Made by a program: the position numbers and the translations under genes
Source of the DNA: Ricordea florida
Taxonomy: Eukaryota > Cnidaria > Anthozoa > Corallimorpharia > Ricordeidae
Assembly (NCBI GenBank): GCA_949710005.1
Contig: OX453281.1
Span: forward strand, 28,366,339-28,430,338
Direction of reading: 5' to 3'
Length of the DNA: 64,000 nucleotides
Notes under the pieces: generated by a model
Told to the model about the DNA's origin: nothing
What the model saw: the letters and a program-made list of their open reading frames with translations, nothing else
Database searches by the model: none
Shown here: positions 7,642-62,900 of the stretch, piece by piece
Position numbering within the stretch: position 1 is the stretch's first letter
How the letters are laid out: the number at the start of each line of letters is the position of its first letter

Positions 7642-7681
7642 CTTCCCGGCTTCTGAAAACGATCTGGCTTTTCCCACTTTC

Positions 7682-12159: not shown

Positions 12160-13640
12160 AGGCCTTCATGTTAGGCCCGTAAGACGTCCCATACATAACA
12201 ACTGTTGCTCTTCAGTAAAAATATACTTGTAGACTGATGCAAATGTCGCAATCTATTGGCTGAGGTACCGCAGACTATCAGCAATTGGAAAGCACGTGGT
12301 TGAAGATCGTTTACAAAATGGCGACGTATGGGCGCTTTTAGCGAAGTTTCGCACGAAAATTGAGTATTTTGGTGTTTTTTTTTACCAACACATGATTTTA
12401 CTAAAACAATTAGATTATTTGCTCTCGATTTAAATGAAGTGATAGTTGATTCGGCCTTCTGCCTCATTAACTATCACCCCATAGAAATCTCGAGCTCATA
12501 ATCTAATTGTTAATTATATATACCATACCAAGTTTCCCTTTACACCATTTCTTACCACGTTTACCTACATTAATCCCCTTTACCCACATCTACCCTAACT
12601 TACCCTCGTTAATTCTGCCACAGCAACCGTCATTCACCCTTAATTAACCTCGTTCTACCGCGGTAACCCTCGTTAACCCTAATTTAAGTATTTTTACCCC
12701 TTACTTCCTTAATCCTCTTCGTTCCTAGTGGAACATAGGTCCTCAACTAGAGCGCACCACCTAACCCTATTCTGTGCAGTGACCTTTGCCTCATTCACGT
12801 CAGATGTTTTCTCTCCAACTCTGCCATTCTCGTACGTTGCCAGGTGTGCTGGGGTCTCCCTCTCTTTCGCTTTCCCTGTGGGTTCCACTCCACTGCCCTC
12901 TTGACTACATGTCCATCTGGTCTCCTCAAGGTGTGGCCGATCCAGCCCCAAGCTCTTTGTCTTATCTCTTGCTCTATCGGTCGCTGCCCTGTTTGTCTCC
13001 CGGGCCCATGCTCCTTGTTGCTGATTTTCCTAGGCCACCAAATCAGCAAGATGTTCCTCAGGCTCTTATTGATGAACACTTGCAATTTCTGGTCCAATCC
13101 CTTATGTTTACCCCTATCTACCCTAAATTAACCACTTCATACCTCGCTGACCATCGTATTGCCCAAGTGAACCTCGTTCTACCACGTTAACCTCCTTTAC
13201 CCTCATCTAGCATGGCTTACCCTTGCTCTACCACGTTTACCCACATCTACCCTAAGTTAACTACGTCCACCCCTGTCTACCCTAAGTTGACCACTTTATA
13301 CCCTGCTGACCTCCATCTACGCTAGTTAACCTCGTTCTACAACTTTAACGCTCATCTACCCTAAGTTGACCACGTCTACCTTTATCTACCCTACGTTAAC
13401 CACTTTAACGCTCATCTACCCTACGTTAACCACTTTAACGCTCATCTACCCTAAGTCGACCACGTCTACCTTTATCTACCCTATAACCACGTTAACGCTC
13501 ATCTACCCTAAGTTGACCACGTCTACCTTTATCTACCCTACGTTAACCACTTTAACGCTCATCTACCCTAAGTTGACCACGTCTACCTTTATCTACCGTA
13601 TGCTTGGCTTCTTTATACCTCGCTGACCTCCGTCTACTCA
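12160..13640. repeat. Degenerate satellite flank, left side
   Basis: From about 12540 the sequence is a worn array of phrases such as CTACCCTAAGTT, CACGTTAACC and CCTCGTTAACC, recognisable ancestors of the 40-bp satellite to the right. At 13335-13600 they form three to four copies of a better-ordered repeat of about 60 bp (CTAAGTTGACCACGTCTACC core). A LINE fragment interrupts the block at 12709-13097. The unique start (12164-12204) recurs inverted at 26710-26750. Confidence 0.8.
12709..13097 (-). pseudogene. Non-LTR retrotransposon fragment: C-terminal tail of a reverse transcriptase
   Basis: On the minus strand one frame reads LQVFINKSLRNILLIWWPRK, then RAWGWIGHTLRRPDGHVVK, WNPQGKRKRGRPQHTWQR. 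After a frameshift it continues QNRVRWCALVEDLCSTRNEED. The order LQVFINK.LR.I / W.WIGHTLR / WNPQGKR.RGRP..TW.R / RW...V..LCSTRNEED is the standard C-terminal tail of a widespread animal LINE polyprotein. The catalytic RT and endonuclease are absent, so this is a 5'-truncated, frameshifted dead copy ending in the degenerate satellite. Confidence 0.85.
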
Positions 13641-14021: not shown

Positions 14022-14089
14022 TATTAACCTCGTTGTACCACGTTAACCCGAATCTACGCTAAGGTGGCCACGTTTACCCTCATTTAACC

Positions 14090-17000
14090 TCAGTTAACTA
14101 CTTTATACCTCGTTAACCCCTATCCACCCTAAGTTAACTACTTTATACCTCGTTAACCCCTATCTACCCTAAGTTAACTACTTTATACCTCGTTAACCCC
14201 TATCTACCCTAAGTTAGCTACTTTATACCTCGTTGACCCCTATCTACCCTAAGTTAGCTACTTTATACCTCGTTAACCCCTATCCACCCTAAGTTAACTA
14301 CTTTATACCTCGTTAACCCCTATCTACCCTAAGTTAACTACTTTATACCTCGTTAACCCCTATCTACCCTAAGTTAGCTACTTTATACCTCGTTGACCCC
14401 TATCTACCCTAAGTTAGCTACTTTATACCTCGTTGACCCCTATCCACCCTAAGTTAACTACTTTATACCTCGTTAACCCCTATCTACCCTAAGTTAACTA
14501 CTTTATACCTCGTTAACCCCTATCTACCCTAAGTTAACTACTTTATACCTCGTTAACCCCTATCTACCCTAAGTTAGCTACTTTATACCTCGTTGACCCC
14601 TATCTACCCTAAGTTAACTACTTTATACCTCGTTAACCCCTATCTACCCTAAGTTAACTACTTTATACCTCGTTAACCCCTATCTACCCTAAGTTAGCTA
14701 CTTTATACCTCGTTAACCCCTATCTACCCTAAGTTAACTACTTTATACCTCGTTGACCCCTATCTACCCTAAGTTAGCTACTTTATACCTCGTTGACCCC
14801 TATCTACCCTAAGTTAGCTACTTTATACCTCGTTGACCCCTATCTACCCTAAGTTAGCTACTTTATACCTCGTTGACCCCTATCTACCCTAAGTTAGCTA
14901 CTTTATACCTCGTTAACCCCTATCTACCCTAAGTTAGCTACTTTATACCTCGTTGACCCCTATCTACCCTAAGTTAACTACTTTATACCTCGTTGACCCC
15001 CCCTATCTACCCTAAGTTAGCTACTTTATACCTCGTTGACCCCTATCTACCCTAAGTTAACTACTTTATACCTCGTTAACCCCTATCTACCCTAAGTTAA
15101 CTACTTTATACCTCGTTAACCCCTATCTACCCTAAGTTAACTACTTTATACCTCGTTGACCCCTATCTACCCTAAGTTAACTACTTTATACCTCGTTGAC
15201 CCCTATCTACCCTAAGTTAGCTACTTTATACCTCGTTGACCCCTATCTACCCTAAGTTAACTACTTTATACCTCGTTGACCCCTATCTACCCTAAGTTAA
15301 CTACTTTATACCTCGTTGACCCCTATCTACCCTAAGTTAGCTACTTTATACCTCGTTGACCCCTATCTACCCTAAGTTAACTACTTTATACCTCGTTGAC
15401 CCCCCCTATCTACCCTAAGTTAGCTACTTTATACCTCGTTGACCCCTATCTACCCTAAGTTAGCTACTTTATACCTCGTTGACCCCTATCTACCCTAAGT
15501 TAGCTACTTTATACCTCGTTGACCCCTATCTACCCTAAGTTAGCTACTTTATACCTCGTTGACCCCCCCTATCTACCCTAAGTTAGCTACTTTATACCTC
15601 GTTGACCCCTATCTACCCTAAGTTAGCTACTTTATACCTCGTTGACCCCTATCTACCCTAAGTTAACTACTTTATACCTCGTTGACCCCTATCTACCCTA
15701 AGTTAGCTACTTTATACCTCGTTGACCCCTATCTACCCTAAGTTAGCTACTTTATACCTCGTTGACCCCTATCTACCCTAAGTTAGCTACTTTTTACCTC
15801 GTTGACCCCTATCTACCCTAAGTTAGCTACTTTTTACCTCGTTGACCCCTATCTACCCTAAGTTAACTACTTTATACCTCGTTGACCCCTATCTACCCTA
15901 AGTTAACTACTTTATACCTCGTTGACCCCTATCTACCCTAAGTTAGCTACTTTATACCTCGTTGACCCCTATCTACCCTAAGTTAGCTACTTTATACCTC
16001 GTTGACCCCTATCTACCCTAAGTTAGCTACTTTATACTTCGTTGACCCCTATCTACCCTAAGTTAGCTACTTTATACCTCGTTGACCCCTATCTACCCTA
16101 AGTTAGCTACTTTATACCTCGTTGACCCCTATCTACCCTAAGTTAGCTACTTTATACCTCGTTGACCCCTATCTACCCTAAGTTAGCTACTTTATACCTC
16201 GTTGACCCCTATCTACCCTAAGTTAGCTACTTTATACCTCGTTGACCCCTATCTACCCTAAGTTAGCTACTTTATACCTCGTTGACCCCTATCTACCCTA
16301 AGTTAGCTACGTTTTACCTCGTTGACCCCTATCTACCCTAAGTTAGCTATTTTATACCTCGTTGACCCCTATCTACCCTAAGTTAACTACTTTATACCTC
16401 GTTGACCCCTATCTACCCTAAGTTAGCTACTTTATACCTCGTTGACCCCTATCTACCCTAAGTTAGCTACTTTTTACCTCGTTGACCCCTATCTACCCTA
16501 AGTTAGCTACTTTATACCTCGTTGACCCCTATCTACCCTAAGTTAGCTACTTTTTACCTCGTTGACCCCTATCTACCCTAAGTTAGCTACTTTATACCTC
16601 GTTGACCCCTATCTACCCTAAGTTAGCTACTTTATACCTCGTTGACCCCTATCTACCCTAAGTTAGCTACTTTATACCTCGTTGACCCCTATCTACCCTA
16701 AGTTAGCTACTTTATACCTCGTTGACCCCTATCTACCCTAAGTTAGCTACTTTATACCTCGTTGACCCCTATCTACCCTAAGTTAGCTACTTTATACCTC
16801 GTTGACCCCTATCTACCCTAAGTTAGCTACTTTATACCTCGTTGACCCCTATCTACCCTAAGTTAGCTACTTTATACCTCGTTGACCCCTATCTACCCTA
16901 AGTTAGCTACTTTTTACCTCGTTGACCCCTATCTACCCTAAGTTAGCTACTTTTTACCTCGTTGACCCCTATCTACCCTAAGTTAGCTACTTTATACCTC

Positions 17001-20000
17001 GTTGACCCCTATCTACCCTAAGTTAGCTACTTTATACCTCGTTGACCCCTATCTACCCTAAGATAGCTACTTTATACCTCGTTGACCCCTATCTACCCTA
17101 AGTTAGCTACTTTATACCTCGTTGACCCCTATCTACCCTAAGTTAACTACTTTATACCTCGTTGACCCCTATCTACCCTAAGTTAGCTACTTTATACCTC
17201 GTTGACCCCTATCTACCCTAAGTTAGCTACTTTATACCTCGTTGACCCCTATCTACCCTAAGTTAGCTACTTTATACCTCGTTGACCCCTATCTACCCTA
17301 AGTTAGCTACTTTATACCTCGTTGACCCCTATCTACCCTAAGTTAGCTACTTTTTACCTCGTTGACCCCTATCTACCCTAAGTTAGCTACTTTATACCTC
17401 GTTGACCCCTATCTACCCTAAGTTAGCTACTTTATACCTCGTTGACCCCTATCTACCCTAAGTTAGCTACTTTATACCTCGTTGACCCCTATCTACCCTA
17501 AGTTAGCTACTTTATACCTCGTTGACCCCTATCTACCCTAAGTTAGCTACTTTATACCTCGTTGACCCCTATCTACCCTAAGTTAGCTACTTTATACCTC
17601 GTTGACCCCTATCTACCCTAAGTTAGCTACTTTATACCTCGTTGACCCCTATCTACCCTAAGTTAGCTACTTTATACCTCGTTGACCCCTATCTACCCTA
17701 AGTTAGCTACTTTATACCTCGTTGACCCCTATCTACCCTAAGTTAGCTACTTTATACCTCGTTGACCCCTATCTACCCTAAGTTAGCTACTTTTTACCTC
17801 GTTGACCCCTATCTACCCTAAGTTAGCTACTTTTTACCTCGTTGACCCCTATCTACCCTAAGTTAGCTACTTTATACCTCGTTGACCCCTATCTACCCTA
17901 AGTTAGCTACTTTATACCTCGTTGACCCCTATCTACCCTAAGTTAGCTACTTTATACCTCGTTGACCCCTATCTACCCTAAGTTAGCTACTTTATACCTC
18001 GTTGACCCCTATCTACCCTAAGTTAACTACTTTATACCTCGTTGACCCCTATCTACCCTAAGTTAGCTACTTTATACCTCGTTGACCCCTATCTACCCTA
18101 AGTTAGCTACTTTATACCTCGTTGACCCCTATCTACCCTAAGTTAGCTACTTTATACCTCGTTGACCCCTATCTACCCTAAGTTAGCTACTTTATACCTC
18201 GTTGACCCCTATCTACCCTAAGTTAGCTACTTTTTACCTCGTTGACCCCTATCTACCCTAAGTTAGCTACTTTATACCTCGTTGACCCCTATCTACCCTA
18301 AGTTAGCTACTTTTTACCTCGTTGACCCCTATCTACCCTAAGTTAGCTACTTTTTACCTCGTTGACCCCTATCTACCCTAAGTTAGCTACTTTATACCTC
18401 GTTGACCCCTATCTACCCTAAGTTAGCTACTTTATACCTCGTTGACCCCTATCTACCCTAAGTTAGCTACTTTATACCTCGTTGACCCCTATCTACCCTA
18501 AGTTAGCTACTTTATACCTCGTTGACCCCTATCTACCCTAAGTTAGCTACTTTATACCTCGTTGACCCCTATCTACCCTAAGTTAACTACTTTATACCTC
18601 GTTGACCCCTATCTACCCTAAGTTAGCTACTTTATACCTCGTTGACCCCTATCTACCCTAAGTTAGCTACTTTATACCTCGTTGACCCCTATCTACCCTA
18701 AGTTAGCTACTTTTTACCTCGTTGACCCCTATCTACCCTAAGTTAGCTACTTTATACCTCGTTGACCCCTATCTACCCTAAGTTAGCTACTTTTTACCTC
18801 GTTGACCCCTATCTACCCTAAGTTAGCTACTTTTTACCTCGTTGACCCCCCTATCTACCCTAAGTTAGCTACTTTATACCTCGTTGACCCCTATCTACCC
18901 TAAGTTAGCTACTTTATACCTCGTTGACCCCTATCTACCCTAAGTTAGCTACTTTTTACCTCGTTGACCCCTATCTACCCTAAGTTAGCTACTTTTTACC
19001 TCGTTGACCCCCCCTATCTACCCTAAGTTAGCTACTTTATACCTCGTTGACCCCTATCTACCCTAAGTTAGCTACTTTATACCTCGTTGACCCCTATCTA
19101 CCCTAAGTTAGCTACTTTATACCTCGTTGACCCCTATCTACCCTAAGTTAACTACTTTATACCTCGTTGACCCCTATCTACCCTAAGTTAACTACTTTAT
19201 ACCTCGTTGACCCCTATCTACCCTAAGTTAACTACTTTATACCTCGTTGACCCCTATCTACCCTAAGTTAGCTACTTTATACCTCGTTGACCCCTATCTA
19301 CCCTAAGTTAGCTACTTTATACCTCGTTGACCCCTATCTACCCTAAGTTAACTACTTTATACCTCGTTGACCCCTATCTACCCTAAGTTAGCTACTTTAT
19401 ACCTCGTTGACCCCTATCTACCCTAAGTTAACTACTTTATACCTCGTTGACCCCTATCTACCCTAAGTTAGCTACTTTTTACCTCGTTGACCCCTATCTA
19501 CCCTAAGTTAGCTACTTTATACCTCGTTGACCCCTATCTACCCTAAGTTAGCTACTTTATACCTCGTTGACCCCTATCTACCCTAAGTTAGCTACTTTAT
19601 ACCTCGTTGACCCCTATCTACCCTAAGTTAGCTACTTTTTACCTCGTTGACCCCTATCTACCCTAAGTTAGCTACTTTATACCTCGTTGACCCCTATCTA
19701 CCCTAAGTTAGCTACTTTATACCTCGTTGACCCCTATCTACCCTAAGTTAACTACTTTATACCTCGTTGACCCCTATCTACCCTAAGTTAGCTACTTTAT
19801 ACCTCGTTGACCCCTATCTACCCTAAGTTAGCTACTTTATACCTCGTTGACCCCTATCTACCCTAAGTTAGCTACTTTATACCTCGTTGACCCCTATCCA
19901 CCCTAAGTTAGCTACTTTATACCTCGTTGACCCCTATCTACCCTAAGTTAGCTACTTTATACCTCGTTGACCCCTATCTACCCTAAGTTAACTACTTTAT

Positions 20001-20690
20001 ACCTCGTTGACCCCTATCTACCCTAAGTTAGCTACTTTTTACCTCGTTGACCCCTATCTACCCTAAGTTAGCTACTTTATACCTCGTTGACCCCTATCCA
20101 CCCTAAGTTAGCTACTTTATACCTCGTTGACCCCTATCTACCCTAAGTTAGCTACTTTATACCTCGTTGACCCCTATCTACCCTAAGTTAACTACTTTAT
20201 ACCTCGTTGACCCCTATCTACCCTAAGTTAGCTACTTTTTACCTCGTTGACCCCTATCTACCCTAAGTTAGCTACTTTATACCTCGTTGACCCCTATCTA
20301 CCCTAAGTTAACTACTTTATACCTCGTTGACCCCTATCTACCCTAAGTTAGCTACTTTTTACCTCGTTGACCCCTATCTACCCTAAGTTAGCTACTTTTT
20401 ACCTCGTTGACCCCTATCTACCCTAAGTTAGCTACTTTATACCTCGTTGACCCCTATCTACCCTAAGTTAACTACTTTATACCTCGTTGACCCCTATCTA
20501 CCCTAAGTTAGCTACTTTTTACCTCGTTGACCCCTATCTACCCTAAGTTAGCTACTTTATACCTCGTTGACCCCTATCTACCCTAAGTTAGCTACTTTAT
20601 ACCTCGTTGACCCCCCCTATCTACCCTAAGTTAGCTACTTTATACCTCGTTGACCCCTATCTACCCGAAGTTAGCTACTTTATACCTCGT
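14090..20690 (+). repeat. 40-bp satellite array, main block (about 165 units)
   Basis: Head-to-tail copies of a 40-bp unit whose halves read CTATCTACCCTAAGTTAGCT and ACTTTATACCTCGTTGACCC. Recurrent variants are TTAAC for TTAGC, TTTTTACC for TTTATACC, CGTTAACC for CGTTGACC, and CTATCCACCC. Five units carry an extra CCCC (near 15000, 15402, 15564, 19010 and 20611) and one an extra CC (18847). The left edge is rich in CGTTAACCCC, the middle almost uniform CGTTGACCCC. Identity between neighbours is mostly above 95 percent by eye, which implies recent expansion or homogenisation. No spacer-like unique sequence is present. Confidence 0.97.
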
Positions 20691-21470
20691 TAACCTTAAT
20701 CCACCCCAAGTTAGCTACTTTATACCTCGTTAACCTTAATCCACCCCAAGTTAGCTACTTTATACCTCGTTAACCTTAATCCACCCCAAGTTAGCTACTT
20801 TATACCTCGTTAACCTTAATCCACCCCAAGTTAGCTACTTTATACCTCGTTAACCTTAATCCACCCCAAGTTAGCTACTTTATACCTCGTTAACCTTAAT
20901 CCACCCCAAGTTAGCCACTTTATACCTCGTTAACCTTAATCCACCCCAAGTTAGCTACTTTATACCTCGTTAACCTTAATCCACCCCAAGTTAGCTACTT
21001 TATACCTCGTTAACCTTAATCCACCCCAAGTTAGCTACTTTATACCTCGTTAACCTTAATCCACCCCAAGTTAGCTACTTTATACCTCGTTAACCTTAAT
21101 CCACCCCAAGTTAGCTACTTTATACCTCGTTAACCTTAATCCACCCCAAGTTAGCTACTTTATACCTCGTTAACCTTAATCCACCCCAAGTTAGCTACTT
21201 TATACCTCGTTAACCTTAATCCACCCCAAGTTAGCTACTTTATACCTCGTTAACCTTAATCCACCCCAAGTTAGCTACTTTATACCTCGTTAACCTTAAT
21301 CCACCCCAAGTTAGCTACTTTATACCTCGTTAACCTTAATCCACCCCAAGTTAGCTACTTTATACCTCGTTAACCTTAATCCACCCCAAGTTAGCTACTT
21401 TATACCTCGTTAACCTTAATCCACCCCAAGTTAGCTACTTTATACCTCGTTAACCTTAATCCACCCCAAG
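20690..21470 (+). repeat. 40-bp satellite array, variant block (about 20 units)
   Basis: The period stays 40 bp, but the unit changes abruptly to TAACCTTAATCCACCCCAAG plus TTAGCTACTTTATACCTCGT. The 20 units are almost identical (one C for T near 20915). The block is a separately amplified subfamily. Degenerate copies continue to about 21535. Confidence 0.95.
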
Positions 21471-21535
21471 TTAACCTCGTTATACCACGTTTACCAATAT
21501 TTATCCTAAGATAACCATCTTTACGCTTATCTTAA

Positions 21536-22177: not shown

Positions 22178-22490
22178 GCTGCGGAGCGAGCGCAGCGAGA
22201 GAGCAGCAATATAATTAGGATTTAAGAGAGATATACTAGGGTATCTAAAAGATAGTGATGCCTCGGCGAATTCTGTTGATACTGACATAGTTTAGGCAGT
22301 GTTCCATCTACCTGCGTGTCCCAAGACTTTTAAGACCTTTAATTCTCAAAATCGTCACAAATTTTGGCGTTACGAAAAGTGGTTTAAGATCCCCCACTAA
22401 AAACAATTCAAATTCGACAAGTATGAAGGAAAATTAAAACCACATTACGTCTAGGTTTATTTAGTTTTGTTTTCAGTCATTGACTTTATA
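22178..22490 (+). repeat. Left arm of permuted inverted repeat
   Basis: Begins with the iterative GGAGCGAGCGCAGCGAG motif and a segment containing GGATTTAAGAGAG, then about 260 bp ending GTTTTCAGTCATTGAC. Both pieces recur on the other strand at 24245-24570, but in swapped order. Identity is high, roughly 85 percent by eye. Confidence 0.85.
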
Positions 22491-22769
22491 CTAAGACGCT
22501 GACGGGTCTATAGGTATTAGTTTTCGAAGGTCTTAGTTTTCTTAATTTCCCAAATCATGGGCAAAATGCTTCCTCTAGAACGCACAAGATTCCTTTCTGT
22601 TCATTATGACGGTTAACTATTATGATAGTTAGTAACTATGCTATTATGGTGTAATGAAGTCATTGAGGGTTACATCATTGTCTGCAGGAAAAAAGACAAC
22701 GATTATGTGACTTAAAATCTGTCCTGGTGTGTATCAACTTCATGCATGGTGACGCATCGATGGCGAGGT

Positions 22770-22970
22770 GTGACTACGTTTGGATATAAAACGATTCATA
22801 TCAACCCCCCCCCCCCCCTTTACCAGATTGGGACAATCGAAATATGTGGAAATTGTAGGAGCAAAAAAGCTGACTTGTGTTTGGACATAAAACGATACAC
22901 ATCAATCTCCCCTTTACCAAATTCCGAAAATCGAAAGATGTGGAAATTGTAAGAGCAAAAAGCTGAACTG
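22770..22970 (+). repeat. Two tandem copies of a repeat of about 100 bp
   Basis: Copies at about 22781-22870 and 22882-22966 share GGAxATAAAACGAT, CCCCTTTACCA and TGTGGAAATTGTA. The first copy contains a 14-nt poly(C) run (22806-22819). Confidence 0.8.
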
Positions 22971-23339
22971 GTATGCATTAAATGTCTCTAGAATGTTGAC
23001 AGACTGTACGTGTCGAGAACGCGTCCATCGCGATGTGTGAAAATACTGAAGCTTTAGCTAAAAATTTATTTGGATAAAAGATCGCATCAGATAAGAAATT
23101 AGCGTGTTCTACGGTTCTCGTTTGTTTCATTATTCTACAAGCTTTAGTACCGGCAATTTCTCTTCATTTAAGAATTCGACCAAGGAGGCGAGACTGCTAC
23201 GAAATGACACACTAAGTTTTAAATTAAATTAAGATGTCACAATTAATCGTCCAGATTTACAAACTTTCACTGAAATCCACGCAAAAAAGGACGCCGGTGC
23301 GACGGTATGACATCCTCATGCTTTTCTGGCGCAATGCAT

Positions 23340-24225
23340 TCTGGTAAAAAGTGCTACGAAGAGCTCTGGTAAAAACTGTGGGTAAGTACTTGGTGTATGC
23401 CCGATTAGTGGTTAAATGCAAGGCATTCTGGTAAAAAGTGTGATTAAATGCAATGCGTTCTGGTAAAAAGTGTGATTAAATGCAATGCATTCCGGTAAAA
23501 AGTGTGATTAAATGCAATGCATTCTGGTAAAAAGTGCTACGCAGAGCTCTCGTAAAAACTGTGGGTAAGTACTTGGTGTATGCCCGATTAGTGGTTAAAT
23601 GCAAGGCATTCTGGTAAAAAGTGTGATTAAATGCAATGCATTCTGGTAAAAAGTGCTACGAAGAGCTCTGGTAAAAACTGTGGGTAAGTACTTGGTGTAT
23701 GCCCGATTAGTGGTTAAATGCAAGGCATTCTGGTAAAAAGTGTGATTTAAATGCAATGCGTTCTGGTAAAAAGTGTGATTAAATGCAATGCGTTCTGGTA
23801 AAAAGTGTGATTAAATGCAATGCGTTCTGGTAAAAAGTGTGATTAAATGCAATGCGTTCTGGTAAAAAGTGTGATTAAATGCAATGCGTTCTGGTAAAAA
23901 GTGTGATTAAATGCAATGCGTTCTGGTAAAAAGTGTGATTAAATGCAATGCGTTCTGGTAAAAAGTGTGATTAAATGCAATGCGTTCTGGTAAAAAGTGT
24001 GATTAAATGCAATGCGTTCTGGTAAAAAGTGTGATTAAATGCAATGCGTTCTGGTAAAAAGTGTGATTAAATGCAATGCGTTCTGGTAAAAAGTGTGATT
24101 AAATGCAATGCGTTCTGGTAAAAAGTGTGATTAAATGCAATGCGTTCTGGTAAAAAGTGTGATTAAATGCAATGCGTTCTGGTAAAAAGTGTGATTAAAT
24201 GCAATGTGTTCTGGTAAAAAGTGAT
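23340..24225 (+). repeat. Minisatellite: 32-bp units plus a longer composite unit
   Basis: About 15 near-identical 32-bp copies (GTGTGATTAAATGCAATGCG followed by TTCTGGTAAAAA) fill 23740-24222. To the left, a composite unit containing GAGCTCTGGTAAAAACTGTG and TACTTGGTGTATGCCCGATT occurs three times (near 23350, 23530 and 23651) with 32-bp units between. It occupies the space between the two permuted inverted arms. Confidence 0.93.
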
Positions 24226-24244
24226 GAATTCGAGAATTCGTCCT

Positions 24245-24580
24245 ACCTTATATACCTCTCTTAAATCCTGATTATGTTGTTGCTCGCTGGCTGCGCTCGC
24301 TCCGTCAATGACTGAAAATAAAACTAAATTAACCTAGACCTAATGTCGGGTTTTGATTTTCCTTCATACTCGTAGAATTCGAATTTCGGTGGGAAGTGGC
24401 AGGGGTATCTTAAACCACTTTTCGTAACGCCAAAATTTGTGACGATTTTGAGAATTAAAGGTGCTCTAACAAGTCTTGGGACACGCAGGTAGATGGAACA
24501 CTGCCTAAACCAAGAGAGAATGAATAACAACAGAATTCAGCATCACTATCTTTTTGATACCCTAGTACTAAATATTATTT
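24245..24580 (-). repeat. Right arm of permuted inverted repeat
   Basis: Read on the minus strand it starts GTACTAGGGTATC, runs through the same 260-bp segment to GTCATTGAC, and only then reaches GGAGCGAGCGCAGCCAGCG and GGATTTAAGAGAGG. In the left arm the GAGCGAG part comes first. The two arms are thus circular permutations of one unit in opposite orientation. Confidence 0.85.
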
Positions 24581-26460: not shown

Positions 26461-26750
26461 GTTGAGGATTAACGTGGTTTACATGGGGTAGATGAGGGTT
26501 AACGTGGTTTACATGGGGTAGACGAGGGTTAACGTGGTTAACTTAGGGCACCGTGAGGGTTAACGTGGTAAAAAGAGGGCAAGTAAGGGCACATGAAGGT
26601 GAACGAGGTATAAAGTTGGCAATATATGAGGTAAACATGGTTAAGTTAGAGTAGATGAGGCTTACCATTGGATGGTCTTAAAGGACTCTTGGTGTGGTAT
26701 AATTGTTAAAGTTGTTATGAACGGGACGTCTTATGGGCCTAACATGAATG
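26461..26750 (-). repeat. Degenerate satellite flank, right side (inverted)
   Basis: 26461-26660 reads, on the minus strand, as CACGTTAACCCTC, TCTACCCC and TTATACCTCGTT phrases. These are the same vocabulary as the left flank at 12540-13640 but in opposite orientation. It is followed by 26710-26750, the inverted match to 12164-12204 (about 36 of 41 positions). Confidence 0.8.
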
Positions 26751-43781: not shown

Positions 43782-46700
43782 TTATGACTCCTTCGCTTTC
43801 TCTGCTTTTTTCGCTTCTACTTCTTTTTTGGCCTGATAAAAAAAGCAGATTGACCAAATTTGCAAGTTAAATCATTCTCTTCAGTCCCAAGACACTAAAA
43901 AACCCAACTTGTACACAGTTAACGCAAGAGTTCAAATTCTCCAAAATAATATATGAGGAAGTGTATGGTATCCAGTAAGGAGATTTACTACTCACATCTC
44001 GGTGTGAATTGGGTAAGCAAGTTAAAGCATCATCCTAATTTGCTAATGTGTACTTTTCTTTTAAAGACTAAAGTTACTGTAGGTTACCTTTTCCACCAAT
44101 GGCATTAGATTGCCTTCTTTGGCCAAAATTTTTAGGAGTTCCATAATCAGAGGAAGATAGTTATGTTTCCTTCTGATATTTTCAACCTGCAAACAAGTTA
44201 TGAAGATTACATCACAGCAAATGAGGAATACGTGACAAAGCCCAAAGAAAATATGAGAAGCTTGTAGTCTAACGATCATCGAGTTGAAAATCGCGTTTTC
44301 TGTGCTCTAATTTGTCTATATTTTAGCCATAAAGCACTGACAGCAAAAAACTTGAATCAATTTGGAAAGAACTACGTAAGGATTGCAAGGTAACAGCAGT
44401 TTCTTAGAGAGGTGCAGCAAATAGTGTTTTTAGTTTTAGTTTTATCACCATCATTGCCACCACCAGAACCATCATCACCATTATCATCATAACCATCATC
44501 ATCGCCATGAACATCATCACCATTGTCATCACCGTCATGATCACCATCATCATAAACATCACCACCAACGTCACCATTATCATCATCACCACCATCATCA
44601 CCATTATCATCATCATCGCCATCATTAATATAGCAAGAAAAGCCCAATAGAAACTTTCAGATTACCAGCACTGAGTTTCTAATTAAAGGAATACAGTTTA
44701 CAGTAGGCAGATTTTTATCAACGTAAGGATTTAAGTTCACACACCTTGTATCGAATCATCTTATCATCCTCAGCATTAATAAGCGCTTGTAATCTTGATA
44801 TTTCAGAGTCAGTGGTTTTCAGCATAGCTTGCAGTTCACTAATAGATGGCACACTTTCATCTGTCTCCATGGCTTCTCCCTGAAATCATGAATTTGAAAT
44901 GAGATGTAGAGTGAGAGAGACCCCACCCCACCTCTATTCACAGCACAGATGGTTGACTGCAAGTATTAAGTCTACCAGCAAAAATTTTCTTAACTGTTAA
45001 ATAACAAAACAGTTGTATTTTTCTTTTTACTGATCCTCACTCTATGATATCTCAGATACAAGCATGGAACATGCGAGGGTTCACCACCACATGTGAGTCT
45101 CATTCACCACTTTCACACCTCTTTTTGCGCATTTTCATCTTCCATTTGCTACAGCATACAACTGTGTCTTAGTCTACGTGAACTTGCAAACATAAACAAT
45201 CAACTTCTTAACTCCTATATCAGCATGACAGGAGTCCATATGATCTGCATTTTTCTTTTGATTAAGATGGAAGCCGATCATTTTTAGAGAAAGGGTGTGT
45301 CAATCTTACCGGTGCTGCTGCTTGAGCTTTCAACTCTTCCAACTGAGGACAAAGAAAGAAGAGTGATAAATGAATAAATAATTAATAAAAGTGGAAGGAA
45401 ATGTGTGTGAACTACAACCCTGACCAAGAGGTTTGGGACAATCCCTTCTTGTAACATAAGCTGGACATACTGGTACATTTCTAAATAAAACAGCATTTTC
45501 CTCTTTCCCACCCCCCCCCTTTCCAATTTGGTATGATTCCAGGGGGAGGGGGGTGGCACAGTAAGAGAAAAAAAGATGACTTAAGTTGTATTTTCAAATT
45601 GATCCTAAACAACATACCGGTATTCATTGCAATAGCTCAAAAGTGTACAGAGGATTTTTGGCCAGAATTGCAGTTTAACTTCTGGTTTGTTAGAAAAACT
45701 CTTGAGATTATTTGTGGTCTATCTCATTTTAATGCAAAACCTAATTAAACACCAAAAGTAACTGTACCATTTAATTTCAAACTGGTCTTTACTGTATCTC
45801 TCCAAAATTACCTTGTCTAGAATTTGTGTTTTCTTTTCATTAAGTCTATCAATGTCTTTCAGAAAAAGTGTTTTTCTGGATGATACAATAGCCATCAGGT
45901 TGAAATGGATTTCCTCTGCTGAATACCTTTAAAAATAAAAGAGAAATACAGATCAGTTTAATGTCCTTGTTCCCACAAGTCCTCTATGGCTCAGTGGTAA
46001 AGCATCCAAATTAGTAATGAGAAGGTGATTGGTTTGACTCCTGTTGGGAGAACTTGGATTTTCATTTTCAGAGTTTGCCTATGACAATGCCAAAACACAC
46101 ATCTTTCACAGATCAATAAACATGTCATAATTTCCTTGAGCACTATATTTACAAACTGTATATCAACCATGGAAGTCCCTATTTACATGTAGTAAGTAAT
46201 AAATGCTATAAACATTTAGTTGATCAGATAAACCTACTTCTGCATTCTTGCTTCTATGATGGGCTTGCAGACTGAGAGCCAGTTTTCTGGAGTACATGGA
46301 CCTGTTAAGTGATATGATCACCATTGCATTCAGTGAATAATATTGGTAGCTATTCATAATGACTAACTAACTGCTCTTAGACTACTACATAATGGTCCTG
46401 TACAGTAAAACGACTACCATGACACCAACAGTAAGCACTTTCTATTTATAGTCTACCTGGCCTTGTGACCACAATATGTGAAGAAACACAAGTAGTTCAT
46501 GTGACAATAATATCATTTTAAAAACTTTTACATTCATGAGCAGAACTCATGTCACACATGCACTGTATACAGAACTGCCTGGAAACAAAAGGATATAGAC
46601 ATTGCCATCCCAAGGGGCACTCTCGCAAGGTAAACCTAGAGCCATCTATAGTGTAACTCACGTCTTCACCATAAGTATCTAACAATTGTTCCATTGTTCT

Positions 46701-47399
46701 TCTTTTTGTTCATAACTGCTACCATGGAAACTCCCCGGTTCCTCTCAAAGAGCTGTTTAACAAACGCACCCCAAAATATAACTTGCGACAGAAGATGTGC
46801 GTTTCGCTGCCCCATCCAAGGACTGAATTTTTAAAGAAATCTATTGCGTACCGTGGCGCCACCTTATGGAACTTTTTAAGTAATGATATTAGGGCAGAAG
46901 ATAATGTAAATAGTTTTAAACGTAAAGTAACCAAAAGTAATGTTTTAGACAATTTCACTTTATTCGATTAGCTTTTTATTTTATATATATATCTATATAT
47001 ATAAAATAAAAAGCTAATATCCCCTGATGAGTGGGCAACCACGAAACAGGCTTGTAGGGATAAACCTGTAGTTTGTTTGTGTTTTTTCTCCCGCAACAAC
47101 TACTTCGCTCTACGTTCACGTATTGAGCACTGTTTTACGATTAATCAACTTTTACAATTTATATATATATATAGATATAAATTGTAAAAGTTGATTAATC
47201 GTAAAACAGTGCTCAATACGTGAACGTAGAGCGAAGTAGTTGTTGCGGGAGAAAAAAACACACAAACAAACTACGGGTTTATCCCTACAAGCCTGTTTCG
47301 TGGTTGCCCACTCATCAGGGGATATAATTTTAACGTTTTAGATTGTACACGACCACATCAGCAACGCTGTATTTTAAACTATCGTGTCTAAATAAATGC

Positions 47400-47432
<33 letters not shown>

Positions 47433-50400
47433 CATTATTATTATTATTATTATCTAAGGTAGCCCAGTTTATACTGGACAAGCTAGAACATTTTTCCACC
47501 AGCTACAGCTGTAGCTTGTGAGCTCAACTGACAGCACATCCTGGACCACTGTCGTCAATTTAACATTTTTTTTGAATGTCTAGCTTTAATCACCCCTTGA
47601 TTAGCAGACCAGAAAGCCGTCTTACTGCAACTAACACTAATATTATTAATTAATTTATCAATTATAAATCATTAGTAGTAATAAATTATTGTTTATTGAT
47701 ATTGTTGATAATATTTCAGTATTAATTTAGAATTGGGTTACTAAATGAAAACACACATGATTCCCTGCAACTCTGAGTTTCGTGCTTACGCACTCATCAG
47801 GCAGATTTAATGAAGAAAAACCCTATCAGCTAGTATATATATATATATATATATTTACAATAAGTAAAACAATAGGAGAAGCTGCGCGTTAATTACAATA
47901 GGTGAGGAAGGCGGATCAGTATTAATTTATTATTAATTTCATTAATAATTTTTTGTTTATAGTAAATTTTATTATTGATTATTATGAAAATCCCTTACCA
48001 AGGTTAACAGGTCCATCTCTAAGGCCATCCAGCTCGTACAGCTTGCCACTGATGGGAACATATGCAACAAAGTGGTAAACATTTTCATCTTTTTGAGGTA
48101 GTTTACCATCAAATTCAAACATCTGTTGCCTGTTAAAAAACAACGGTGGCAGTAAGATATTAACTTCATGTCAGTAGCTTGATCCCCAAGTTGAACTCCC
48201 TCTGTTACTGTTATAATTAGCTATTTGTATTCAACTCAAATAGTCATGATAACAAATTATTGTGCGAACCTGGCAAAACCATTGTGAACTTGTTTAATAA
48301 CATCAGAGTTGCTTAGACTGAGGCCCTTAAGCTGTGGACAAGATGAGAAATAACTGTTATAGATAATATTCAGCACATTTTTTGATATACTGGCATACAA
48401 AAAAACATGATTTCTAGTACAATATACATTTTAAAATAGGTAATACTATCTAAACTGAACAGAATCATTGAAATTCAAGTACTTTATTGCTTTACCTTTA
48501 AGGGACTAGCAATAATTAGGAAAATAAAAGCATTACTTACAGATCCATCAAATGTTGCTGAGAATTCTTTGAAGTTTGATAGAGTTGGTCCAAGGTCAAG
48601 ATCTGGATGATGGCAGTTTAAAAGAACACTTAAAATGGCTTGAGTTGCACAGGCATTGGTGATCACCTGGAATAACAAGACATACTTGTACTTAACTCGT
48701 TGATCATGCAACAATATTTATTTATTTATTTCTGCTTCATTAATCTAAACTGTACACGTTATCTGGGGTGTCATTAGGTCCGGGCAATGGGCAAAATTGA
48801 CTGCACATGACGACAACTTTGCCTGGCTGCTTCAACATCTCAACCAAAAGAACAAAACATACTAGTTATGCAATGCTTTCGAGTAATATACTATGGAATA
48901 TCCCATAAGTCACATATTTTCTTGGTATCACAATGCACAATGGGAAGGCTGGGTGTGATACCGTTGAATTGCACTGATCTATGAGAATGTTCTATGGAAT
49001 ACTAATGAATATACAATGGCTTTCCTACATTCCGATTCCCTGTTTTTTCTATGGCAGGGTATAAAAGTTTTTATCTAGTGTGATGACTTGAGTAATGTAT
49101 GCCTGGGTGCAAACAGAGATGCCCACCTGCTTCAAACTTTAAAGAAAACCTGCTATAAGCATTACACATTTATTTACTGGATATTATCAACTCTGGGGTG
49201 ATCGGTCAGAGACATTTCAAGTGAATCCTTTGTGATTTGTTATCTGATCCATTATAATTTCTCAACTGAATTTATATTAGCCACTGTTTACCTTGGTCTA
49301 AGTCAAAAACACCAACTTTCATAGGGTGAAATGGTTTGATATTGATTACCTCTTGGGATAAGTGAGAAGTAAAAGTTGTGAAAGAAAAAGTTTCACACCC
49401 ACTTGTTTAGCAAAGAAAATCCCCTGAGTTCTGCTCTCATGGACAATGGGTCCAGCAGGCTCCTCACCAGGCTTCCACTTGAACAGGAATATTAGACCGT
49501 GAACAGGTCTGGGAATGACACATTCAAGAAATTTTAAATCACGTAATTACTGAGTGACAGTGTAAGTATAGTGTGTGGAGGGTAAAAAGTGGCAGTCACT
49601 GTTACAATCAAACCAGGCCCCTAGAAAGAAATATTTAATAATATAATTATGGGTAAATGCACTAGGGTGTAATCTAGCAAAATAGCCAGTGTAACTTAAG
49701 GAAACCACAAAGGCAGTCATCTTAAAAATACCAGTTAAAGGGTGTGTTCCTTTGGTATGATCTGGATTTGAAAACATGGATCACGGCACATCAAAGAAAC
49801 TGATGAATCTATTCTGGACAAGGACTCATCTGTTCCTTTAATTTCCTTTAATTTTACAAATGCAGATCCTGATCATACCAAAGGAAAGCACCCATAGTCA
49901 AAGGTTGTAAAGTGCAATTTTGAGGCCTTTATTTCAGAAACCAGAGCTGTTGCATACAAGAAACAGTGTCAAAAGCTGGTTGTAGAGTATATTACATATA
50001 TCATTAGAGTGAAAAAGTACCGTAAGTTTTCTAGAGACGCCTCATCAAGGGAGTAGAGCTCCTCTACTTGCACACCAGCACAACCTATGTTGAAACAGCC
50101 AGGGTAAATCAAATGATCTGTTACTTCCAAATTGAAACTGATTAATACTAACAAACTATTTGTCATTAATTGATTAATTAATTCATTAATTATGTATTTG
50201 CAAGTGTAAAAAAATAAGAGTTGGAGCGATTGAGAATTTACAATAGTAAGATTACGTTGTAATGCTTGGCTGAAACACGTATTACCTTTAACACTGTTCC
50301 AGATTAAAAATCTTTAGACTGGGAAATGATAAAAAAAAACTCTTAAAATTTGCTTAGTTGTTAGCCACAGTGTCTCACAGCACCATGTCTGGATGTCATT

Positions 50401-50927: not shown

Positions 50928-53900
50928 ATGCAAACGGTAGACACGCCAAACTGGTGCAACGATACAATGTGGCGACCACCTTTTAGCGAGTTTGTGTCTT
51001 CTGCTTTTTGTCCCGGCTCATCACCTGCGCCCTTACCACAGGTGAAAACTTGCTGTAAACCTGTTCTTCATGTTAAGTTCTTTTACAGTATGCATTTTTG
51101 CGTAGATTTAAGGTTGTAGGTCGATTAGCCCCCAAGTCGATTAGTCCCCAAACTAAAAGTCGATTAGCCCCCAAACTAAAAGTCGATTAGCCGTCAAATA
51201 ACTTTTCTATTATCGAACAAACTCGCGATCTAACTTATCTACTCGTGACGCTAGCTGACATCGGCGTACTAACAAAACCTGCGATGGTCCACGATCCAAA
51301 CGTTTTTGATGTTGATGAAATTGTAGCCTGTTGCGGTCGAGACAAATCGGTTGATCTGATCGATTAGAACTGTATCTTGTAAATGTTCTTTACTTCGTTA
51401 ACATTCAGAACCAAAATCTCGTTCTAAAGATCTTAAACCAAGCAAAAATCATGAAGTTTTTAAACGTAAACTTAAGCAAATGTTGTTCGATATTTAGATA
51501 TTAGATTTCTAATTATTAACTTTTCCCCTTTTCAATATTCAACATGAGCTTACTATTTTGAAAAAAAATAGTGATTAAAGAAAGGAAACCCGGTCACCCT
51601 CAACGAACGAACAAACGAACTTACTTATTGACTTCAATTCCAAGCATTACTAAAACAATGAGAAACCCGAAGAAGAGTAATCTAGTATTAAAGTTGAAAA
51701 CAGATTTTCGTTAGGGGCTGATCAACTTTTACTTGGGGGCTAATCGACTTGGGGGCTAATCGACCGGATACCGATTTTAAACTTTATTCAATGTGAAACA
51801 TATGCAAAAAAAAAAAAATCAGTTTGATGCGATTATTACAGTGAACAAAGGGAGTTTTTTCTACATTGTCCTATGCCATAAATCCAGTTTGACTAGATAT
51901 ACATAGATGTTACCACGTACTCCATTGTGCATGTTGTAGCTACACTGTTTAGGATAACATGTTGGTAAATGATGTCTTGCCTTTGATGAAGGAAACAGTT
52001 CAGCCACAGCATGTATTATAAGGTATAATAATAATATATACCTCTTACTAACCGAGTTCAAGGTCGAGGCTCTGTAACTTACAGTATGGAGAGAGAAAAC
52101 AAGGTTTGTAAGATGTTTATTATATCTCTTCAGCAACCAAAACAAATTTTTGAATTTAGTGGGACATACAGTGAAGTATGGCCCACTAGAGTGACCAATC
52201 ACAGGGCAGGTACTAACTGAGAGATATAATAATGAACTTTATTTGAGTGTCAACTGTATGTAGCACTAACATACTAATTGGTGACACTGTAAAGTGTAAA
52301 TGAAAAATGAAATGTATGGGCTGGTGCAGAAATGTAGCCAGTTTCTCCAATTGATATGTGTCTCAATATTCCTGTATAAATTACTTTATCCTTGCAGGGT
52401 GACAACCAGCAATTTCGTCCGAGCCTTCAGTCTTTCTGCGGTCGGGGAAATGTTGCTCCAGGCTATTCCACAGCATTGCCAGTCAGCATACCACCTGCAT
52501 ATTCATCAAGACCACCAACTCTGCTTCGGCACCCAGGGATTCATCAGCCTGTGGCTCAAATATACCAACAACCCAACATGTTTATGAGTCAAAGGACGTT
52601 CTTACCCACCTCTCCCATAGGCCCACCTCCAGTCCAGATGCCAAACATGCTGTCTCCTCCCCCCAGGAGCATGTTTATCCCAAGTCAACAGTCTTCAGTC
52701 TCTGGGAAAAAACCTTGCAACCAAGGGATCAGTCTGCCTTTACCACAAATACACCAAAACCCAAATATGGTTACTAATCAAAGGCCATTCTTACCGACCC
52801 AACCCATGGGTCCACGACAACCTCTTATGCCAAACACACTATCATTCCCTTCCAGGAAGATGTATACTCCAGTTCCACGGTCTTCAGCTGTGGGTATTAT
52901 ACCTTGGAAGGAAAGTGTCAGCTCACTACACAGTTATGATAATTTCAACTCTAACGTTAACAAGAAGCCCTTTGTTGCTGCTGCTCAACATATCCAACAG
53001 ACGTCTCTTTCTTATAAGCACAAAAGCATCAATTACAGTCCTGTAAATACCGGTATTCAACGGTCAGCTGCCCATGAAAAGGTAAGTACATGCTTTTGTT
53101 TTATTCAACCCTTTATCCCCTAAGAGTGACTTTATAGATTTTACTCTGGCTTATGCTAGACGATCTTACTCATCTCAGGGAGACCCATTAGGGCTTAAGG
53201 AGATAGTTTTTAAAGGGTTAACCAAGCTACATTACAATAATAGTGTACAAGTGATTAATAATCATGTGAACAGAGTTACTAAGTCACTAATTGCATCCTG
53301 GTCATACAAACATCAAGAAATTTACCATTCGTTACCATGGACCAAAAATCTGAAATTGCCTTCCTGTATCTATTACAAACTTGTCAAGATATCCTATCTT
53401 TAAGAATAGAATGCTAGAGTTTATTAGAATAGTTTCAGAGTTATCCTAGCCACACACTTTTGCAGCCCTTATTTATTTCTTATTTTTTTTTTTATCATAT
53501 TGTGATGTTGAGGTGGCCTCTCCTATGAGCTTGGTGGTTTCTTAAGGTCTCCTCCCCTAGCAACTACAAACATACTGTACTCTGTGAAACTCATTCTAAT
53601 ATCAAGGTTAATAAATGATGATGATGATTTTATATCTAAACAGATGGTCTCAGCAAGATCCAGGAAACCACAGGTTCATGGGACACCATGCCATGGACAA
53701 AGATCCTCAAGCCCTTCAACCCTACAAAGAATAACATGTCACCATAGAGATTATATGGATAGGGACCCTGGCAGGTGAGTTCTGCTTGGTAAAGGTTTTC
53801 AGTAAGGCTTGACTTCCATATTTTCACTGGCATTCATGATGTTTTATTTACATGTGGTGCCTTTTACAGTATTTTCATAATTGATAAAACAGCTACAATG

Positions 53901-59900: not shown

Positions 59901-62900
59901 TTATTATTCGTATTGTTTCTCTAGAATTTCTGTGTTCAAGACTTGGAGCTGTTTTCACAGTTTCTGTTTCACAAAGTGCTTGAACTATCTGACTGGGACC
60001 TAAATGGTAAGATGGATTATTAGAAATAATTCTGTTATTTTTTAAGGTCATTCTTTATGCAGTCGTTAAGGCCTGGTAATTGTGCAAGCAGGCAGGGATA
60101 ATGATGAAGTGTGGGTTTTGTGTCATAATAATAACATCATTTTTTTAAAAACTTATAATGATTTATTTTTTTGAGCCATTGTAGCCAATATTTGTTTACA
60201 TGACTGTGTAGATTTGGACTGCCCAGATAGTATTCTTTAATTGAGGTAGTTAGTATGTAATAGTTAAAATTACTATTCTTACAATAGGTAGTGTTCCAGA
60301 TACATGCCAACAGTATCATTTTATGCCAAGATTTGTTTACAGAGATCCAGGTAACTTATGATAATTATGTGGTCTTGTGTCTGATAACAGCTAAAAAAAA
60401 CAGCTGCTAATTTACTGTCATAAATTTAACACACACGCAATTTCCCTTGCACTCAGTCCAAAGCACCAATCACAACTCAGGGAAATACTTGTTGTCAAAA
60501 CTAAGACAGGAAAATGTGTGTGACCTTGTGCAATTTCTCTTAGTTTTTCTACTGAATGGTTGATGAATTGCATTGAGGTTCTTTGGTCAATTACTTATTC
60601 TAGCAATACAAAAGCATACCAGTTGTAGGATTACTTTTGAAAATGAATTGAAAACCAGTGCAGTGCACAATATCCCAGTCTTGCCACAGCATACATGTTT
60701 CACTACCGGCAGTTTGGTGTGGTTTGGGCTTTCCAACTCTAGTTTACAGTATTTTGAGGTATAGATACAGGCTAGAAATATATGCCATTCAGTGGTCAAA
60801 GTTACAATGAATATGGTATTTAAATTGTATAAACTTTCTCACTTGTCTCATGATGCATTTTCTTGGATGTGTATTGCGATTTTTTACCTCTAACTGCTGG
60901 TCTTCTTCAGGAGATGGGATAATGACTGAGATTTAAATTATTTTTAGTATTGAAAGCTTAATCAAACTTGAGTCTGTTCTTTCAGATAAGAGTGAAAGTA
61001 AGGAAGAACAGCATAAACTTCTGTCAATGAATTATGTGTTGTCCCATATCATAGACAGTGCTGAGCCACTTATTAAGGTAAAGCCATTAAACATTTAATA
61101 TGTTTTAGTTTATAGTTTTTAGTTGAGCGGTTATAATTTTTATACTTTTGTAAATAGCTGATGAATTTGCCCGTGGTTAAATAAAGTTTCATTCATTCAT
61201 TCATTCATTCACTGTTTATTTCAAGAATGGAGGGGCGTGTGGGTCGGGGGGGGGGGGGGGTCAGTAGAAGCCAACCACCAGTGGTATGGTATACCAATAA
61301 CTGCATATTTAGGGAGTTTAAGATCTACGACGGCGACGGTCGACGAAAACGTCACCTCAAGATATAACTTTGCCTTATCATATTAAAGTCTTTCGCGATT
61401 ATTCAGTTTCATTCACGTCCTACAATATGGGCGAAATATCCTAAAAATAAACTGGTACGAGCGGTTTCAGAGTTAAAATAGAGAATGAAAGATTCTCTGT
61501 TGCATGCTTACGTTGTCGTCAAAACCTCAAATTTGGTATTTTCACGTCGTCATTATGCGGAGTACCGCAAGAAACCGTGTCGCACGTGCAGCACGATTAT
61601 TTGTGCTCTTTTAACCAATGATATCATTGTTTTGCGGCGTTGTTGTTGCCGTCGCCGTCGTAAAATCTTAAGCTCCTTTATGACTGATAAAGAGGACTTA
61701 ATGTGGACGTGTCAAACTAAGGCCTTGCTTGACCAAGCGAAAGTGAGGTCATTATAAAATGGCCAAGTCTTGTTCCCGTTAAGACCATACATGCGCGTTC
61801 AAGGTTAATGTGTTGTCAATTATATGGCTTTGTTTGGGCAATGGTGGTCCTAATAAGATGTTGCTCTGGACATAAACATTTATTCAGAATACCCCTGGGT
61901 CTTACGGGGGATTCTGCGCCAGGATGGCTAATCAGAGTCGTTATATCGACAAATAACACTATAGTAGTGAAAACTATACGTTGTGGTCCAATTTTATCCT
62001 TGGTTGAAATTTTATTTTCCTTTGTTTCAAACTCATTATAATACATTTCCATACCAAAAAAAAACAAAGCAAAATAAAATTTAAAGCGGGGGAAAAACAA
62101 CATATATACCAACTCGGCAACCTTGGCATTTTGAACAATGTGATTGGCTGTCAAGATCTTGGGTCGATATGCTCCCAGTATGGCCCTCGCGCCTGGTCGA
62201 TCAGATATATATATAATTATTTATTATATCTCTCAGTTAGTACGCGCGCTGTGATTGGTCAATTTAGCGGGCCGTACTTCACTGTACGGCCCGCTAAAGT
62301 TTGTTTTGGTCGCCAAAATGACTCCAGAGATATAATAAATATCTTATTAACCTCGTTTTCTCGGTCCGTACTGTAAAATACGGATCCTCGTTTTTTCCCG
62401 TAGATTTATGGCCCAAGCGCGAAGCGCGCGGGCCATAAACTCGGTCCGTATTTTACAGTACGGACCTCGAACTCGATTAATAAGAGAGGTATTTACATCC
62501 CTGGCCACTTTTCCCCTCTAGTTTACTGAATAATTTTCAATTATTTCATTTGTTGTACAGCCGTACCACTTTTGTCTTCCCTTTGATGAGTGGCGGGAAT
62601 TTGTCAAGTCCTGTGTAAACTCCATTGTTATCAGACCAGACAAGGTATGGTTAATTGCAGTTAAGCTAAACATCAGATAAATTTGTTATATTTGGTATAT
62701 GTTAACATGCCAAGTGGCCAATCAGATAGATGCGTGTTCCTCCACCCCCTCCCCCCCCCCCCTAGGTTTCTGTAGCTCAGGGGAGCAAAGGCACACATCT
62801 GCCACAGGACACCTACGATTTGGAAGGTTATCCCAGCTATAGTAACACAAAGAAGAGTATTTTTGCCTACTCTCCCTTGTTTTACATTTTTTCATTAAAA

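What the first reader, a model, noticed from the sequence alone, without database searches (positions are those of the whole stretch)
47018..47062. Complete minimal hammerhead ribozyme with 2-bp stem III
Seen: CTGATGA, a GTGG-GCAA-CCAC hairpin, GAAA, CA-GGCT-TG, GTA triplet, and TATCCC/GGGATA stem I, all in the canonical order. Known: type-I hammerheads with very short stem III occur in Penelope-like elements and metazoan retrozymes. Inference: this is a self-cleaving RNA from such an element, probably active as a dimer because stem III is so short.
Basis: partly seen in the sequence, partly recalled or inferred. Interest (0 to 1): 0.8.

Follow-up and report, generated by a model that had tools for sequence, protein, structure and literature searches.

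The report
Minimal hammerhead ribozymes on a palindrome
The short stretch does spell a complete self-cleaving hammerhead RNA of the kind carried by animal jumping genes, but it is one of two mirror-image copies at the ends of a 300-base palindrome dropped into what looks like an older jumping gene, with a third, related ribozyme nearby; it is a real but largely expected find, the mirror arrangement being the unusual part.

Summary
The hammerhead at 47018-47062 (+) is real. A covariance model built only from viral-contig type I hammerheads gives three strong hits in the 64-kb window: 47018-47062 (+), 47280-47324 (-) and 47763-47806 (-), E 2e-9 to 4e-9; the next has E 1.1. A strict descriptor gives none in 128 Mb of simulated sequence. 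Rfam sees it only below threshold. The third hammerhead, with compensatory changes, sits in a 186-bp insert with a putative 14-bp target-site duplication. All lie between exon pieces of a UCHL5-like gene. The dimer idea has some computational support: the two-strand minimum-energy fold is a double hammerhead with a 10-bp stem III, while the monomer prefers another fold. But the copies are inverted, so one transcript cannot make a cis-dimer and buries its ribozyme in a long hairpin. Most likely a non-autonomous, reverse-transcribed element of Penelope/retrozyme type, inserted as an inverted dimer. The own genome could not be searched, so family, copy number and host are untested.

The parts
47018..47062 (+). 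Minimal type I hammerhead (HHR1-left); stem I 6 bp, stem II 4 bp, stem III 2 bp plus A15.1-U16.1; predicted cleavage after 47056
   Evidence: 34.5 bits, E 3.7e-9
47280..47324 (-). Identical inverted copy (HHR1-right); predicted cleavage after 47286 on the - strand
47018..47324 (.). Near-perfect palindrome, arms about 153 and 155 nt, centre at about 47169/47170 in (TA)n; HHRs at the outer ends facing inward; outside (TA)n the arms differ by one substitution and one 3-nt length difference
46967..47018 (.). Short palindrome (25-bp arms, 2-nt spacer) also centred on (TA)n, at the left junction; its left half overlaps the LINE-like stop codon, so it is read as a fold-back of target DNA (inference)
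46675..47453 (+). LINE-like remnant (frame open to a stop at 46969-46971, end in (TTA)n at 47402-47453) that holds the palindrome; start approximate; the LINE label is recalled from the look of the protein and has no Pfam hit
47764..47805 (-). Third minimal hammerhead (HHR3), with changes on both sides of pairs in stems I, II and III relative to HHR1; predicted cleavage after 47769 on the - strand
   Evidence: sequences; 35.2 bits, E 2.1e-9
47730..47915 (-). 186-bp insert holding HHR3 with (TA)n upstream of it; 68 nt from the ATG inside CTGATGA to the 3' end
47716..47729 (.). Putative 14-bp target-site duplication, copy 1
   Evidence: a shared word this long in 2 of 1000 shuffles (tested after the repeat had been seen)
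47916..47929 (.). Putative 14-bp target-site duplication, copy 2
44061..49546 (-). UCHL5-like gene; pieces matching UCHL5 chain residues 146-189 (within 47985-48170, E 4e-17) and 210-239 (within 45719-45928, E 0.005, weak but in order) bracket both hammerhead inserts
   Evidence: the piece at 49349-49546 is below its Pfam cut-off (25 of 27 bits)

Best explanation
The motif is a genuine minimal type I hammerhead of the sort carried by animal Penelope-like elements and short non-autonomous hammerhead elements. SHOWN: complete core, three stems, covariance of stems I and II, two identical inverted copies at the ends of a ~300-bp palindrome, and a third diverged relative in a separate short insert with a putative target-site duplication. 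INFERRED: the palindrome arose when a ~150-nt RNA with the hammerhead at its 5' end and (UA)n at its 3' end was reverse-transcribed by a retroelement enzyme; the (UA)n end folded back, or two cDNAs annealed there, giving an inverted dimer that was joined into an AT-rich break in the LINE-like remnant; the small fold-back at the left junction records the same (TA)n self-annealing on target DNA. INFERRED: as a monomer the ribozyme is slow or misfolded and works best as a trans-dimer of two RNAs, cutting after 47056; in a transcript of this locus it can act only before its downstream complement is made, then it is buried in the hairpin. So this copy is probably a quiet insertion, tolerated in an intron.
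For: Covariance model from viral-contig sequences only: three hits E <= 3.7e-9, next 1.1. 0 descriptor hits in 128 Mb simulated. On 5 distinct sequences (2 from the window, 3 viral-contig ones picked by hand) 98.3% of 60 cells pair, 8 of 12 pairs have changes on both sides, slid controls pair 29-39%. Dimer fold -36.7 kcal/mol equals a double hammerhead. Palindrome arms and both (TA)n centres. 14-bp repeat around the third copy, 2 of 1000 shuffles. Papers: PMC3846280 passages (inverted pLTRs with palindromes at the junction, self-priming proposed, a sense template predicted to give tail-to-tail repeats, AT-rich targets), PMC11167929 passages (a Penelope protein cleaves and extends both target strands; hammerhead cleavage not needed for insertion in vitro), PMC7229834 parts 1-4 of 6 (minimal hammerheads in Penelope-like and Terminon elements; short circRNA elements in animals).
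Against: No reverse transcriptase or endonuclease gene was found; only 10 proteins were scanned. No target-site duplication was found at the palindrome: longest shared flank word 8 nt, reached in 410 or 644 of 1000 shuffles for two choices of the left edge. Whether other copies exist is unknown: all 24 requests to the own-genome search did not complete. Penelope inverted repeats are most often head-to-head (PMC3846280, passage); here the hammerheads face inward, tail-to-tail. Flanks of HHR1 and HHR3 show no significant similarity, so a common element is not shown. The self-complementary stem III loop is only moderately special: 33rd of 256 tetraloops, and 83 of 256 loops give the active dimer; HHR3's loop ranks 59th of 64 and its hammerhead fold is -7.2 against a best fold of -13.3. 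The prefix folds of the + transcript give stem III probability 0.00 at all 13 lengths. Folding z-scores are weak. For the Anolis Penelope element no RNA-seq reads ended at the cleavage site (PMC11167929, passage), so cleavage in vivo is uncertain even for known relatives.
Confidence: 0.55

Rival explanations
1. A MITE-like DNA element: a ~300-bp fold-back with TATCCCC...GGGGATA ends inserted at TA by a transposase, which has a hammerhead inside its terminal inverted repeat.
For: Near-perfect inverted arms to the very ends; TA on both outer sides; no longer duplication found.
Against: TA next to the ends is trivial in an AT-rich target; a hammerhead in a DNA-transposon end has no function that I know of (recalled); no transposase evidence was seen, though it was not searched for specifically; the third hammerhead sits in a retroelement-like insert with a putative 14-bp duplication.
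Confidence: 0.2
2. A solo inverted pair of Penelope pLTR pieces, i.e. a direct remnant of an autonomous Penelope-like element.
For: Inverted pLTRs with palindromic junctions are described in Penelope elements (PMC3846280, passages); the hammerhead overlaps the ATG as in the Anolis element (PMC11167929, passages); ATG to cut is 30 nt here and 26 bp there.
Against: In Penelope the pLTR ends about 12 codons after the ATG (22 with the tail) and the palindrome lies at its 5' end (PMC3846280, passages), so hammerheads at the ATG should face outward; here they face inward with (TA)n downstream. The frame from the ATG closes after 14 codons.
Confidence: 0.15
3. A local rearrangement: a single hammerhead element inserted first and was later turned into an inverted duplication by DNA repair or replication slippage at (TA)n.
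For: Both palindromes are centred on (TA)n, which forms hairpins and promotes fold-back repair (recalled).
Against: The inverted copy stops at the hammerhead outer end on the far side, next to the LINE-like sequence; a later event would be expected to copy flanking DNA too.
Confidence: 0.1

Closest known systems
Minimal type I hammerheads of Penelope-like elements and Terminons (Cervera and de la Pena 2014; Lunse et al. 2017; Arkhipova et al. 2017: known here only through other papers, not held)
   Same: CUGAUGA/GAAA core, short stem III, no stem I loop, predicted dimer, ATG inside CUGAUGA, AT-rich target
   Different: No Penelope gene or pLTR shown; inverted inward-facing pair instead of tandem copies
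Animal non-LTR retrozymes (PMC7229834, parts 1-4 of 6 read)
   Same: Short non-coding unit (about 153 and 186 bp against 150-450), GC 38% and 35%, type I hammerhead, putative duplication longer than 4 bp (third copy)
   Different: No tandem array; no loop-loop type stem I; one copy is palindromic
Penelope inverted pLTRs of Adineta vaga (PMC3846280, passages read)
   Same: Inverted repeats with a palindrome at the junction, AT-rich targets, one family inserted into a non-LTR retrotransposon
   Different: Most often head-to-head and described around an ORF; the word hammerhead has 0 occurrences in the main text held
Schistosome W-element hammerheads (PMC8490949, passages read)
   Same: Minimal hammerheads with extremely short stem III in repeats
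   Different: Satellite-like repeats; no palindrome with hammerheads at its ends in the passages seen

Membership tests
Hammerhead ribozyme, type I | CUGANGA...GAAA core with H17 before the cleavage site | tested here: met
Hammerhead ribozyme, type I | Stems I, II, III supported by covariation | tested here: met
   stems I and II; the two stem III pairs counted do not vary, and the next stem III pair (A-U in HHR1, U-A in HHR3, from the sequences) is the only stem III change on both sides
Hammerhead ribozyme, type I | Rfam gathering score | tested here: not met
   best hammerhead score 15.0 bits for HHR1, 21.0 for HHR3 (Hammerhead_3, E 0.0073)
Hammerhead ribozyme, type I | Self-cleavage | not testable with these tools
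   no bench
Penelope-like element | RT / GIY-YIG ORF nearby | tested here: inconclusive
   no such Pfam match in 10 proteins; the rest of the window was not scanned
Penelope-like element | Hammerhead at the 3' side of a pLTR, pLTRs in tandem or head-to-head | tested here: not met
   the palindrome is tail-to-tail with inward hammerheads; the third insert has a fitting polarity but no ORF
Animal retrozyme | Tandem repeats of 150-450 bp, each with a hammerhead | tested here: not met
   no tandem copy in the window
Animal retrozyme | Small circular RNA | not testable with these tools
   needs RNA
TA-duplicating MITE | Several copies with the same palindromic ends and TA duplication | not tested
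   own-genome search unanswered (24 calls)

The most novel reading that the evidence does not exclude
A distinct family of non-autonomous elements that spread as inverted hammerhead dimers: each genomic copy encodes a ribozyme on both strands, so transcription from either side yields a cleaving RNA early and a self-silencing hairpin late, and (UA)n self-priming regenerates the palindrome at each jump.
Probability: 0.12. Interest if true: 0.7.

Novelty: new member of a known kind. Interest (0 to 1): 0.35.

Why it matters
[quoted passage not shown] A recent-looking inverted dimer with intact ribozymes at both ends suggests that uncleaved RNA was the template and that (UA)n self-priming on a sense RNA can happen, which a 2013 paper says would give tail-to-tail repeats (PMC3846280, passages). 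If the palindrome recurs in the genome, that becomes directly testable.

Tried and rejected
Chance: rejected. Relation of the HHR1 arm to the HHR3 flanks: none beyond the ribozyme (95 to 499 of 500 shuffles as good). tRNA-type SINE: no A or B box by simple patterns. miRNA precursors: Rfam E-value matches on the long hairpin are below their gathering scores and reflect the palindrome itself. Duplication around the LINE-like remnant: longest shared word 7 nt, reached in 298 of 300 shuffles. Assembly artefact: judged unlikely because the arms differ by a substitution and a length change and the insert splits a LINE-like remnant; not tested with reads. Relatives: the GTG...CAC stem II version has 0 matches in genome contigs and viral contigs, both of which may leave out the own genome; all 58 matches in 45 viral stretches carry GTC...GAC. 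LINE-like C-terminus in viral contigs: 8 pattern matches, none confirmed. Heterodimer of HHR1 and HHR3: rejected by eye, their stem I strands do not pair. Papers not held: Cervera 2014, Lunse 2017 (two ids), Arkhipova 2017. A palindromic or inverted hammerhead element was looked for and not noticed in the listings; that is no proof of absence.

Covariance training set: of 58 matches, 35 passed my type I filter (stem I at least 5 bp), as 18 distinct sequences; 2 long ones were left out before the first alignment, then 4 that aligned badly, leaving 12. The core was fixed by the search pattern, so the core's part of the score is by construction. For one search I picked three of these sequences by hand.

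Full report
OBSERVATION. Three hits to a strict descriptor exist in the window: 47018-47062 (+), 47280-47324 (-) and 47764-47805 (-); none arose in 60 first-order simulated windows or in 2000 second-order simulated windows, 128 Mb. Folding energy alone is unremarkable, z -1.3 to -1.75 for four stretches. Rfam lists nothing at gathering level in the 64 kb. With the search cut down to the motif it lists RAGATH-1 hammerhead 15.0 bits and Hammerhead_1 12.2 bits for HHR1, and Hammerhead_3 21.0 bits, E 0.0073, for HHR3, all well below threshold.

INDEPENDENT COVARIANCE TEST. A scan of viral contigs for a hammerhead core pattern gave 45 stretches with 58 matches. From these I took 18 distinct type I sequences (35 of the 58 matches), dropped two long ones and then four that aligned badly, and built a model on 12. 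Over the window, both strands, it gives three hits at E 2.1e-9, 3.7e-9 and 3.7e-9, and a fourth at E 1.1; the calibration is short, so the E-values are rough. The core's part of the score is by construction; the stems I and III are not fixed by the search pattern, although my filter demanded a stem I of at least 5 bp in the training set. On an alignment of the window motifs with three hand-picked viral-contig ones (5 distinct rows) 98.3% of 60 cells pair and 8 of 12 pairs change on both sides; slid controls pair 29-39%. The two stem III pairs counted there do not vary.

HHR1 has an identical copy on the other strand. The two form the outer ends of a palindrome of ~300 bp whose arms differ, outside the central (TA)n, by one substitution and one 3-nt length difference. 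The hammerheads face inward. The centre is (TA)n. A second, small palindrome (25-bp arms) abuts the left end and is also centred on (TA)n. The whole interrupts a LINE-like remnant whose frame ends at 46971 and whose far end runs into (TTA)n; that it is a LINE is recalled from the look of the protein, without a Pfam hit. Both this and the third hammerhead lie between pieces of a UCHL5-like gene on the - strand that match UCHL5 chain residues 146-189 and 210-239 (E 0.005), with a further piece at 278-314; the residues in between were not located.

THE THIRD HAMMERHEAD. It keeps the core but differs from HHR1 on both sides of several pairs in stems I, II and III (sequences). It lies in a 186-bp insert bounded by a 14-bp direct repeat first seen; words that long between the flanks occurred in 2 of 1000 shuffles. 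In ribozyme sense, (TA)n precedes the ribozyme and the insert ends 68 nt after the ATG inside CTGATGA. The Penelope pLTR plus tail reaches 22 codons into the ORF (PMC3846280, passages), a suggestive but single match. Beyond the ribozyme it shows no significant similarity to the palindrome arms.

HOW IT MAY WORK. The HHR1 hammerhead fold is -10.9 kcal/mol, but the monomer's best fold is -13.8; it keeps stems I and II but pairs the core CUG with CAG. The two-strand fold is a double hammerhead at -36.7 with a continuous 10-bp stem III. Its weight is modest: 83 of 256 loops would do the same and the native loop ranks 33rd. HHR3's loop ranks only 59th of 64, and its hammerhead fold is -7.2 against a best of -13.3. 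In growing + transcripts of the palindrome stem I has probability 0.61 at 47062 and at most 0.11 from 47070 on, stem III 0.00 at all 13 lengths; the complete transcript is one long hairpin. So this copy should cleave poorly in cis, and since its two ribozymes are inverted they cannot pair as a cis-dimer.

ORIGIN. Three observations point to reverse transcription: the third copy's putative duplication, the intact ribozyme in both arms (an uncleaved template), and (TA)n at both palindrome centres. Passages in PMC3846280 propose self-priming for Penelope and state that a sense template would give tail-to-tail repeats, which is what is seen here relative to the ribozyme. Passages in PMC11167929 report that a Penelope protein nicks and extends both target strands and does not need hammerhead cleavage in vitro; the same paper found no RNA-seq reads ending at the cleavage site. 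Against: no duplication at the palindrome itself, no retroelement gene in the 10 proteins scanned. A TA-type MITE is not excluded and would be settled by a genome search, which did not complete (24 calls).

VERDICT. A real minimal hammerhead, new member of a known kind, in an unusual inverted, inward-facing arrangement seen once. My judgement is about 0.93 that the motif is a bona fide hammerhead by descent, 0.55 for the full origin story. The host species is unknown to me; the gene content (Kelch-like, UCHL5-like) looks eukaryotic and I take it for an animal, untested.

Noticed in passing
47716-47929: 186-bp insert with the third hammerhead and a 14-bp putative target-site duplication
   Followed up: yes
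14088-21510: Satellite of a 40-bp unit, about 185 copies, 97% matches; similar-looking 30- to 117-bp arrays at 13246-13601 and a 30-bp one at 26463-26569
   Followed up: no
22182-24524: 32-bp tandem array (23408-24223) between inverted repeats of 59-61 nt (86-98%), perhaps a DNA transposon
   Followed up: no
52065-52242 and 62211-62390: Two inverted copies of one repeat family, 83-84%
   Followed up: no
3752-7689 (-): Six Kelch repeats in one frame, BTB and BACK in another: probably one Kelch-like gene
   Followed up: partly
47018-47324: A transcript of this locus would be a ~150-bp near-perfect hairpin, a possible small-RNA source
   Followed up: no
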